DNA of 64,000 nucleotides. Origin: Wuchereria bancrofti (lineage: Eukaryota; Nematoda; Chromadorea; Rhabditida; Onchocercidae). The notes under the pieces are model-generated. The model was not told where the DNA came from. It was given only the letters and a program-made list of their open reading frames with translations, and made no database searches. The stretch covers positions 5,316,399 through 5,380,398 of the forward strand of contig SSBO01000001.1 of assembly GCA_005281725.1 (NCBI GenBank). The letters are read 5' to 3'. The translations under genes and the position numbers were made by a program. The stretch's first letter is position 1; the number at the start of each line of letters is the position of its first letter. Positions 26,801 through 29,663 of this stretch are shown in pieces.

Positions 26801-29663
26801 TATAAATGATGATGTCACTAGTCGTAACGATGATGATTTGGAAGTAGTGCAATGAAAATTGCAAGAATACCGGTCCTTTCAATTTTTCCATTTTTGGCAA
26901 ACATCAGAAGACTGAGGACCGTAGATCGCAACTAATAGATTCACAATTAGTTACAATATTTTCTCAATGGCAAATGAAGTCTAACAATTGCTTCTCATTT
27001 GTTTCTATAAGTGGATGGCCAATTCATAAATAATAAAGTGATGTGCGAAATATCATCAACTTATGCACGTTAAAGAGAAATTCATATTGTGGAATATACC
27101 ATATAAAAAGGAAAATGTGATCATGGATCAAATATTCTACCGTCTTCATCCGTATTTCCAATTTTCTGTTTAAGGCAAAGCTATACAAAAAATACTCCGA
27201 TCAGCATAGTCTGGAATGAATGAAAGAAAAGATGAATGAAGTGAATAAAAAATAATGAATGACTGAAAGAAAATAGAGAAGGAAATTGATTCTAAAAATA
27301 TCAAGAATAACTGCGTGTATGAACAGCTGTTGCATAAGGACTGGATTTTGTGTGCTTTCACTTCCAGAAAAAACTACACTCTGTTTCTTTCATATTTAGA
27401 ATTATTAGGTTCTCTTGTGGAAATATAGATCTCTTGCAGTGCAAGTGGAGATACCACCGCAGTTGGATAACGCTGATAGACAGTGATTCATTTTATCTTG
27501 AAGAACAAAAAAATATGGTTATGAAAGAAGTCATTGATAGATAAAAGAGATCTCTTAAACGAAGTACATCCAAACCAGGCAAGCTTAGAATAATTGTTGG
27601 TTCACAACCGTCTTTGAGCGGCACCAAGCATATAACCATATCCATTTAAAATCCCTATAATTAAGAAACATCAACAGCTGTCGCTCTTCCGAATAATTCC
27701 CGACTTAAATTATTTCGAATTCTCATTAATTTTAAGAAGTGCGTTCATGATAAGTTGAACTATGTAAAAGCATTTCAAAGCTACTCATTAAGAGAAGGAT
27801 TTTTTTGACCAATTTTGTGATCCGGTAAGCTTGTCAACTGGGAAATGACAGTATTTTGGTTAACAAGTAATAAATTTTTTTACGATTCAGAGTGCAGCAA
27901 GAGAAATGAATCCTCAAGTTGCTTAATGAAATGTTGACAATCAATAACGAATCGTAGATGACAATTTACCAAAAAATTGTAAACAGAGAAGAAAGTCAAG
28001 GAAGGATTTAGCAGACAAGTTCACGAAGCAAACAAGCAATAAAATAACAGACGTCATCATCAGACTAGGCAAATAAATCGATACAATCACCTTCCATCGA
28101 TGTTTCATAAAACATTTTCTCAACGTTCAAACAACACTGAGAAGTATTCCTTCACAAATAACTAGTCAATAATCCAATTCTTAATGTTATTTACGTGTAT
28201 TCTCATTGCAAGTATTAATAATTTCAACATGACTTATCCAACATGAGAAGAAGAGAAGACCGTACTTTGTCATGAAATTTGAGAGGACAGATAAACTAAA
28301 AGTATAAAATGATTATTAGTGTTGCAGATAAATCAGTGTGGTTTATCATCTTCATCAAAAATGGGTGGTGCCTCAAATTCGTCCAGCTGTGTTCAAGCTA
28401 CCTTGAAGACGCTTTACTTTATGTTATTTTGTTGCTGCACCTGGTCTACAGCAATGGTATTGCCCACTGAGCCATTGTTCAGTAAGCACACAGCAACATT
28501 CAACGTAACAAATCCAATGTATCTGCAGAACATTAAACCGAAGAAAGTGCTCGGAGTATTAGAGGAAGCATTCAGAGAAGTGCTTGCAGATGTACAGAAC
28601 GAAACATATAGTATTACGGAGGAAGAGGAAGATCGACGTCGTCGACGTCGTCGTCGTATGCTCCAGGCCAACCGTGATATGCTTACATTAATGGGAAAGC
28701 GAAAAAGAAGACTTAAAGCGGACCTAATCAAAGCGAAAAACAATCATTCCCCATCCAAAACAGTTTAGCCGAAGAAGCGATAAACATTGTTGTGACTGTT
28801 TTGATTTCGAAAATGTAAAAATTTTACAGAAACAAAATCTGAACATTAATTACTCTTATGTTTCAGTAAATGTTTTTACAAAAATTGACCTGGCATAAAA
28901 ATACAAAAAAAAAGTCAATTTCACAGGCACAAACAAAACGTCTTGTTATTCACCAACTTTAGGGAAAGCAGAGTGTCAAATGTAACGGTTCGACAAATAT
29001 ATATATATATATATTTATTGAGTATAACTAAAAGTCACTACTGATAATGGACTAGAGAGTGCAGACTCGTAACACGAGCAAGGCCTAGTAAAGATATCTT
29101 TGAAGACCAGTACTTTCCACATCTGTTACATAACAATAAGAGCAAAACTTGCAGACGAAATCCCAATTTACAAATGTAGTTAACGGACTACTATGGTAAC
29201 TGCTAGTGGAATATTAAAGGTTTAGAAGAGAATAACAACCTTCCCAAAGGACTTCGTCGAGCATGGCTAACGGAAGCATCTTGTCTGGATAGTTGATAAC
29301 GGTCATTTTCTGCAGAGCTCACTCGACAATTACCATCCAACACCGTCACTGTACGACGAGATTGACGTTTCGAGAGACTGTCACCAGCATTATCCTGAAA
29401 AATAATGAGTTTCTTTTTCCAATTTCTCTTCAAAAAATTTAACATCATGGACTACTATGATAACGAGAGACATTATTGAAATTATTTTGTGATCTAAGAT
29501 TAAAAATTGAAATCTCCATGAGGCGCCGAAAAGTAGCATCAAGTTTTGCGCAATTTTAGCAAATACAATAGGATACAAAAAATGTGCTTACCACGGCCAA
29601 TTTGAATTTGTCTTTTGGTGGTAGTGACAAGGAGAAAAATGGTTGTGGATCGATGGGTGTCAT
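8830..29663 (-). CDS. tir-1: TIR-1 / SARM1 orthologue: ARM-SAM-SAM-TIR NAD+ hydrolase
   Basis: TIR-1/SARM1 is an NAD+-cleaving adaptor that controls axon degeneration and p38 MAPK innate-immune and neuronal signalling. Eighteen exons join in phase (1,029 aa): 29663-29592, 29394-29240, 21673-21304, 19969-19868, 18014-17868, 17747-17595, 16746-16593, 15985-15796, 15626-15476, 14595-14369, 13595-13484, 11809-11642, 11102-10950, 10782-10575, 10514-10339, 9994-9839, 9543-9328 and 9009-8830. A low-complexity N-terminus (Pro and Ser runs, residues 76-280) precedes ARM repeats (about 285-650), SAM1 (about 654-718, QYWVKK and MVDGDLL), SAM2 (719-788, AADYGSVDES and LSPELSVYTYQML) and TIR (about 815-960, KQIDVFISYRRS, VFIDVDKLYAGKFDSSLL). 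The Glu of CEDWIHKE (residue 898) aligns with the catalytic Glu of SARM1 (human E642). The C-terminal tail after 970 is Ser/Thr/Gln-rich. The start at 29663 follows an in-frame stop and a possible trans-splice acceptor at 29792. Other isoform starts are likely, as in C. elegans. Confidence 0.95.
9839..9994 (-). CDS. tir-1: tir-1 exon with the TIR catalytic region
   Basis: Fifty-two codons from VFIDVDKLYAGKFD to CEDWIHKE, phase 0 at both ends, with donor GAG|GTTTGT. It holds the BB-loop neighbourhood and, as its very last codon, the Glu that is the NADase catalytic residue in SARM1-family TIR domains. The next exon (9543-9328) continues LRCAFDYHKNVIPIFD, which completes the fold. Confidence 0.95.
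10948..10949 (-). other. Non-canonical GC splice donor in tir-1
   Basis: The exon encoding the end of SAM1 stops at CTTAAA and the next minus-strand bases are GCAAGT. Joining there in phase 0 to the acceptor at 10782 gives ELESLK-IAADYGSVDES, the continuous SAM1-SAM2 linker expected for the family. The GT four bases later would shift the frame. GCAAGT is the usual sequence of minor GC-AG introns spliced by the major spliceosome. Confidence 0.75.
11810..13483. other. tir-1 intron without further genes
   Basis: A 1.7-kb AT-rich intron between the ARM exon at 13595-13484 and the exon at 11809-11642. I see homopolymer runs and AT-rich filler but no further exon on either strand. The open frames at 12223-12517 on both strands carry no splice signals or conserved motifs. 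Confidence 0.6.
13851..14072. repeat. Short direct repeat in a tir-1 intron
   Basis: The 21-base word beginning GACAACAGTCGAAAG occurs at 13851-13871 and again, identical, at 14052-14072. It lies inside the intron between the exons at 14595-14369 and 13595-13484. An exact 21-mer 200 bases apart is unlikely by chance and suggests a small local duplication. Confidence 0.6.
18484..18700. repeat. TG/TA-rich simple sequence in a tir-1 intron
   Basis: From about 18610 to 18700 the plus strand is a degenerate run of TATG, TGTATG and TGTGTA units. It makes an open frame of Tyr, His and Thr on the minus strand (18484-18717) that is a low-complexity artefact, not a protein. Confidence 0.55.
23278..23298. 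repeat. GCT/CTG trinucleotide repeat, seven copies
   Basis: Seven uninterrupted GCT units in the long tir-1 intron. No coding frame spans the run, so it is an intronic microsatellite rather than a poly-amino-acid tract. Confidence 0.85.
25480..25974. repeat. Duplicated 66-bp segment
   Basis: 25480-25545 and 25909-25974 are the same sequence with seven differences by eye, all transitions, in the same orientation about 430 bases apart. Both copies are open in the same minus-strand frame and encode RIYGLVGTHYCSD-like and RVYGLVGMHYCSD-like peptides. Four of the resulting codons differ in the amino acid, so there is no sign that either peptide is being kept. Confidence 0.75.
25797..25994 (-). 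other. Exon-like open frame inside the long tir-1 intron
   Basis: Preceded by an acceptor-like CTCAACAG at 25995, this frame runs 65 codons from RVETRKIKSNRVYGLVG to the stop at 25797. It is hydrophilic and includes one copy of the duplicated 66-bp segment. Its phase does not fit as a cassette between the flanking tir-1 exons, because the frame demanded by phase 2 hits a stop. It could be a terminal exon of an unknown isoform, a decayed gene piece or chance. No family was recognised. Confidence 0.25.
28361..28768 (+). CDS. Candidate secreted neuropeptide precursor nested in tir-1
   Basis: Intronless frame of 135 codons with ATG at 28361 in a good context (AAAAATGG); the frame stays open upstream to 28319 without another Met. 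The first 40 residues look like a signal peptide: a polar start, a hydrophobic core around LYFMLFCCCTW, then small residues before VLPTEPLF. The middle (about residues 41-95) is a propeptide-like stretch ending in an acidic EEEED. Eight consecutive Arg follow, then MLQANRDMLTLMG and KRKRR. A peptide between basic cleavage sites, ending in Gly before Lys-Arg, is the classic layout of an amidated neuropeptide; the product would end LTLM-amide. The tail LKADLIKAK to the stop could be a second fragment. The ANRDMLTLMGKR end resembles the ANR-x-x-L-x-x-x-GKR end of CRF-like diuretic hormones, by eye only. It lies on the strand opposite tir-1, inside tir-1 intron 2. I do not recognise a named homologue. 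Confidence 0.7.
   Translation: MGGASNSSSCVQATLKTLYFMLFCCCTWSTAMVLPTEPLFSKHTATFNVTNPMYLQNIKPKKVLGVLEEAFREVLADVQNETYSITEEEEDRRRRRRRRMLQANRDMLTLMGKRKRRLKADLIKAKNNHSPSKTV
28997..29014. repeat. AT dinucleotide microsatellite
   Basis: A short uninterrupted AT run about 230 bases past the peptide gene stop, still inside the tir-1 intron. Confidence 0.8.
29592..29663 (-). CDS. tir-1: First coding exon of tir-1 (one isoform)
   Basis: Twenty-four codons starting MTPIDPQPFF and ending KFKLAV, with donor GTG|GTAAGC in phase 0 to the exon at 29394. The same frame is open upstream without a Met back to an in-frame TAA just inside the acceptor at 29791, so this ATG is the only start in the exon. The encoded KDKFKLAV-DNAGDSLSKRQ junction reads smoothly. 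An additional upstream exon feeding a longer isoform remains possible. Confidence 0.65.

What the first reader, a model, noticed from the sequence alone, without database searches (positions are those of the whole stretch)
28361..28768. Nested intronless gene for a candidate new amidated neuropeptide
The frame has a signal-peptide-like start, an acidic propeptide end, eight Arg in a row, then a 12-residue peptide followed by Gly and KRKRR. That is the processing layout of an amidated peptide, predicted product MLQANRDMLTLM-amide. I do not recognise a named nematode peptide family with this sequence. It sits antisense inside the long intron of the neuronal gene tir-1.
Basis: partly seen in the sequence, partly recalled or inferred. 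Interest (0 to 1): 0.8.

Follow-up and report, generated by a model that had tools for sequence, protein, structure and literature searches.

The report
Filaria-only small secreted protein gene
The open frame looks like a real gene for a small secreted protein shared by several filarial worms, but the amidated neuropeptide proposed at its end is not conserved; the conserved and probably working part is the stretch before the arginine run.

Summary
The ORF at 28361-28768 (+) is as described: hydrophobic leader, acidic stretch, eight Arg, MLQANRDMLTLM-Gly-KRKRR. Its length alone is within chance. But 9 related predicted proteins were found, all named ones from filarial worms: Brugia pahangi, Wuchereria bancrofti, Loa loa, Dirofilaria immitis, Acanthocheilonema viteae. 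So the gene is probably real. The window is most likely W. bancrofti.

Gly-[KR]-[KR] after the Arg run occurs in 2 of 10 rows, both W. bancrofti; B. pahangi has Glu for Gly; A. viteae ends 11 residues past the run. Tail substitutions look mostly unconstrained. The conserved part lies between leader and Arg run (FNVTNP, NIKP, a helix ending EVL), with conservative substitutions, a kept N-glycosylation sequon and an amphipathic helix. A furin-type site follows in 10 of 10 rows.

Best reading: a lineage-restricted secreted pro-protein whose N-terminal 50-60 residues are the product. Expression, cleavage and function are untested. Nesting inside tir-1 is unproven.

The parts
28361..28768 (+). single-exon ORF, 135 aa, small secreted-type pro-protein
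   Evidence: relatives
28326..28327 (+). possible splice or spliced-leader acceptor AG (ttattagtgttgcAG), 33 bases before the ATG
   Evidence: read from the sequence; inferred, no transcript seen
28361..28453 (+). signal-peptide-like leader, residues 1-31, predicted cut STA|MVLPT
   Evidence: strongest hydropathy window of the protein lies in the N-terminal part in the 6 of 6 unspliced rows that hold it (moderate values, 1.47-2.16); Ala before the predicted cut in the same 6; no SignalP was available
28454..28609 (+). conserved segment, residues 32-83, holding FNVTNP, NIKP and an amphipathic helix ending EVL; probable product
   Evidence: 69-81% identity to P0004, P0005, P0007, P0008, P0010 with conservative substitutions; 21 invariant positions in the 7 trimmed rows; helical moment
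28502..28510 (+). NVT N-glycosylation sequon (residues 48-50)
   Evidence: present in 7 of the 7 rows that cover it
28610..28633 (+). variable acidic linker, residues 84-91
28634..28657 (+). Arg run, residues 92-99, furin/proprotein-convertase-type site; length varies among relatives
   Evidence: R-x-[KR]-R at this place in 10 of 10 rows
28658..28765 (+). poorly constrained tail, residues 100-135, including the proposed MLQANRDMLTLM-Gly-KRKRR
   Evidence: substitutions mostly like an unconstrained simulation; GKR in W. bancrofti rows only

Best explanation
A single-copy gene for a small secreted pro-protein, so far seen only in filarial nematodes. The leader takes it into the secretory pathway, the core is glycosylated at NVT, and a furin-type protease cuts at the Arg run. 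This releases the conserved N-terminal 50-60-residue, cysteine-free, amphipathic-helical polypeptide as the product, and the basic tail is discarded. Shown: the frame, its relatives, the conserved core, the kept sequon and basic site, the weakly constrained tail. Inferred: secretion, glycosylation, cleavage, and that the core is the active part. Whether it is an internal signal of the worm or a protein released into the host cannot be told.
For: All named relatives are filariae in three searches of 5.8 billion proteins. Core 32-83: mean BLOSUM62 at mismatches +0.45 to +0.93 against -0.29 to -0.38 in a neutral simulation for P0004, P0005, P0007, P0008, P0010 (one-sided P 0.017, 0.048, 0.077, 0.017, 0.004); tail 100-135 in the same rows P 0.51, 0.62, 0.08, 0.80, 0.95. 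R-x-[KR]-R in 10 of 10 rows, NVT in 7 of 7 rows covering it. Hydrophobic leader. Amphipathic helix: shuffle P below 0.05 in 9 of 9 rows that hold it, several from the same species.
Against: No transcript or peptide was seen. The P values share one reference and related worms and are not independent; two of the five core values and that of the partial row P0009 (0.073) are at or above 0.048. In the proposed peptide block itself P0007 (0.045) and P0005 (0.15) lean towards conservative change. Two gene models (P0003, P0006) splice out part of the core. The Arg run is encoded by a near-simple repeat. The structure model is weak (mean pLDDT 62, pTM 0.24) and gave no credible PDB match.
Confidence: 0.55

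Rival explanations
1. One reading: the product is the amidated peptide MLQANRDMLTLM-NH2, cut out between the Arg run and GKRKRR.
For: The layout is textbook in the window itself; B. pahangi keeps the 12 residues.
Against: GKR after the Arg run in W. bancrofti rows only, 2 of 10; Glu for Gly in B. pahangi; site lost in P0007 and A. viteae; tail substitutions mostly unconstrained.
Confidence: 0.06
2. A secreted protein that is not cut: the Arg run is a cationic patch, or a repeat expansion tolerated in a disordered tail, and the whole chain works.
For: The Arg run varies in length and is interrupted by His and Tyr in some relatives; encoded by a near-simple repeat.
Against: R-x-[KR]-R is kept in 10 of 10 rows although its surroundings vary.
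Confidence: 0.2
3. The core belongs to a longer or alternatively spliced gene, as models P0003 and P0006 suggest, and the tail frame is not translated or not in the main form.
For: P0003 lacks 24 and P0006 36 core residues; the tail is poorly conserved.
Against: The segments spliced out in those models are among the best conserved in the other worms, so the unspliced frame is favoured. Downstream exons were not searched for systematically.
Confidence: 0.14
4. A non-coding conserved element or a chance frame.
For: Length alone is within chance.
Against: Similar frames in worms with 50-72% protein identity, and conservative substitutions in the core.
Confidence: 0.05

Closest known systems
Nematode neuropeptide-like protein (NLP) precursors, including the filarid-specific RPamide gene nlp-85 (PMC8764417: abstract and sections 2.2 and 3.6 read)
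   Same: Leader peptide, basic cleavage sites, in some cases a lineage-restricted gene
   Different: The amidation Gly and the short peptide are not conserved; none of the motifs printed in the sections read resembles it (supplementary tables not read)
CRF/DH44-type hormones
   Same: ANRDMLTLM-Gly recalls the amidated end of insect DH44 (recalled, from no call)
   Different: Eight Arg stand directly before the block, leaving 12 residues; the block is not conserved among filariae
bZIP / BTF3 (names given by sources to P0002 and P0003, and to P0005)
   Same: An Arg-rich stretch near a helix
   Different: Neither is among the Pfam matches at E up to 10; leader-like start; the helix precedes the Arg run

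Membership tests
amidated neuropeptide precursor | signal peptide | tested here: inconclusive
   hydropathy and cut-site residues fit; no SignalP
amidated neuropeptide precursor | basic cleavage sites flanking the peptide | tested here: met
   both sides in the window; the upstream site in 10 of 10 rows; the downstream one varies
amidated neuropeptide precursor | amidation Gly before the basic site, conserved in relatives | tested here: not met
   2 of 10 rows, one species
amidated neuropeptide precursor | peptide better conserved than the rest of the precursor | tested here: not met
   core 69-81% against tail 24-68% identity in P0004, P0005, P0007, P0008, P0010; the block alone is 33-79% in the four of these that hold it
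amidated neuropeptide precursor | expressed in neurons, peptide detected | not testable with these tools
   no expression or mass data held
CRF/DH44-type hormone | about 40-residue helical amidated peptide with a conserved C-terminal end (definition recalled) | tested here: not met
   Arg run splits it; end not conserved
bZIP | basic region followed by a leucine zipper, Pfam match | tested here: not met
   not among the 13 families listed for the 10 rows

The most novel reading that the evidence does not exclude
The conserved 50-60-residue, glycosylated, cysteine-free helical core is a filaria-specific secreted hormone or host-directed protein of a new family, released by furin-type cleavage.
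Probability: 0.35. Interest if true: 0.5.

Novelty: new member of a known kind. Interest (0 to 1): 0.3.

Why it matters
Proteins found only in filariae and sent out of the cell are candidates for worm signals, diagnostics or host contact, and this one carries misleading automatic names (bZIP, BTF3, acyl-CoA oxidase) and conflicting gene models. The case also shows that a perfect-looking amidation layout in one genome can be private to one species.

Tried and rejected
CRF/DH44 kinship, suggested to me by the ANRDMLTLM end, was dropped when relatives lacked it. Pfam gave only weak matches under the cut-offs (best HAM1_C, E 0.0013, 19.3 bits against 27; matched by 3 of 10 rows). PDB sequence search gave nothing better than E 0.083. 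AlphaFold2 gave a long low-confidence helix and Foldseek one match at E 8.8. A scan of bacterial and archaeal genomes found 291 pattern matches, none a relative. One of 115 pattern matches in viral contigs passed (L002, 39% over 38 residues); it overlaps, in frame, the start of a 150-residue frame beside another large frame on a phage-type contig. I take it as chance: short, picked by pattern, E-value relative to the candidates only, no leader or Arg run seen; it was not followed further.

Papers: the four locus or accession names gave 0 papers; searches for filarial neuropeptides list no title or abstract start that names this gene. PMC8764417: abstract and sections 2.2 and 3.6 read. PMC7704054: passages; it looked for new protein genes among antisense and intergenic reads with a multi-exonic frame, so a single-exon gene could have been missed. 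PMC3961327: passages; listings only.

Full report
Observation. The frame 28361-28768 (+) translates as described: 135 residues, a hydrophobic start, EEEED, eight Arg, MLQANRDMLTLM, Gly, KRKRR and a short basic end. The whole protein has one match in the 86.5-Mb, 108-contig assembly. A core query gave one further place, at 24% identity and E 6.7. The frame's length does not prove a gene: 18 of 100 and 40 of 100 simulated windows (first- and third-order) hold a frame of at least 151 codons. GC of the ORF is 43% against 34% in the flanks.

Organism. Primer sequences that I recall as specific for the W. bancrofti SspI repeat and the Brugia HhaI repeat were used as patterns. The first matched at 4 places, the second at none; the tool warns that very common words may be skipped in DNA searches, so the miss is weaker evidence than the hit. 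The W. bancrofti protein P0003 is identical over all aligned residues and the B. pahangi protein P0002 is 94% identical. The window is therefore most likely W. bancrofti. The papers were seen as a listing only.

Relatives. Three searches (one sequence, two profiles) found 9 proteins in all (6, 9 and 9): B. pahangi (P0002, P0006), W. bancrofti (P0003), Loa loa (P0005), Dirofilaria immitis (P0008), Acanthocheilonema viteae (P0010), and three without organism names (P0004, P0007, P0009). All the named ones are filariae. The search needs shared five-residue words and limits length, so distant relatives, in C. elegans for example, are not excluded. No relative was found in bacterial and archaeal genomes.

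Where the conservation lies. In the alignment of the window's protein with the 9 relatives (10 rows) the core is kept and the tail is not. Trimmed to the part before the Arg run, 7 rows share 21 invariant positions, among them FNVTNP, NIKP and EVL. I compared the substitutions with a simulation of unconstrained codon change at the same identity. In the core, mismatches are more conservative than the simulation in P0004, P0005, P0007, P0008 and P0010 (P 0.017, 0.048, 0.077, 0.017, 0.004). The other rows with mismatches there gave 0.077 (P0002, one mismatch), 0.094 (P0006, 16 residues) and 0.073 (P0009, partial). In the tail the five rows gave P 0.51, 0.62, 0.08, 0.80, 0.95 (P0010 with 11 residues only). 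In the proposed 15-residue block the values are 0.80 (P0004), 0.15 (P0005), 0.045 (P0007) and 0.49 (P0008), so some weak constraint there is not excluded. The leader also looks little constrained (0.20, 0.45, 0.23, 0.03 for P0004, P0005, P0007, P0008). These values share one reference sequence and are descriptive.

The amidated peptide. Gly-[KR]-[KR] after the Arg run occurs in 2 of 10 rows, P0001 and P0003, both W. bancrofti. P0010 has a GKK, but before its basic site. B. pahangi reads MEKR, P0004 and P0009 LTLTGNRKR, Loa LTLTGNQERR, D. immitis LIENRKR; P0007 has no matching site, and A. viteae ends 11 residues after the run (that end rests on one gene model). Among these rows the predicted product is private to W. 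bancrofti.

What it probably is. The most hydrophobic stretch lies in the N-terminal part in P0001, P0002, P0004, P0005, P0007 and P0008, the 6 unspliced rows that hold the N-terminus (13-residue means 1.47-2.16, moderate). Ala stands before the predicted cut in each. NVT is kept in 7 of 7 rows that cover it and NET in 9 of 10. The core of the window's protein holds no Cys. Its helix is amphipathic, with shuffle P below 0.05 in 9 of 9 rows tested, some from the same species. R-x-[KR]-R follows in 10 of 10 rows. The simplest account is a secreted pro-protein cut at the Arg run, its N-terminal part the product. Cleavage, glycosylation and function are inferred. The structure model (mean pLDDT 62, pTM 0.24) is too weak to name a fold, and one search gave one match, at E 8.8.

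Gene models. The W. bancrofti model P0003 leaves out 24 core residues and the B. pahangi model P0006 leaves out 36. Those residues are among the best conserved in the other worms, so I take the unspliced frame as the main product. The names bZIP, BTF3 and acyl-CoA oxidase have no support in Pfam.

Surroundings. tir-1 runs on the minus strand: 9728-10057 matches C. elegans TIR-1 (8p2m) at E 7.7e-29 and 17538-17822 matches residues 44-105 of that chain at E 3.1e-15. Whether tir-1 has exons beyond 28.8 kb, so that this gene is nested, is not shown. The frame at 21271-21786 has no TIR-1 match and that at 37637-38008 no Pfam match; but in that Pfam scan none of 6 pieces matched, the confirmed TIR-1 piece included, so it says little. 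Nested genes on the opposite strand are a known arrangement in animals (listing only).

Verdict. A probable real gene for a small secreted protein restricted, as far as seen, to filariae; not a supported amidated neuropeptide. No paper naming it was found; only the open-licence library was searched.

Noticed in passing
window 28414-28743 (-): A 109-residue open frame lies antisense over the same stretch; probably a by-product of the Arg/Glu repeat and the coding frame.
   Followed up: no
window 37637-38222 (-): A coding-like frame (DVSRLHPSFGANSSRPPDYSEF...) and, upstream of it, an ATG-led short frame with a possible donor; could be 5' exons of tir-1 or a separate gene.
   Followed up: partly
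window 46492-55995 (-): Frames that look like a protein kinase, possibly of the SRPK type (recalled resemblance; no Pfam match for the two pieces tested).
   Followed up: partly
window 28319-28360 (+): The codons before the ATG are alike in four relatives (NQxGxSSSSxM in P0002, P0004, P0005, P0007), whose models start further upstream; in this window the codon matching the B. pahangi start is GTG. Either a similar 5' UTR or a longer N-terminus in those worms.
   Followed up: partly
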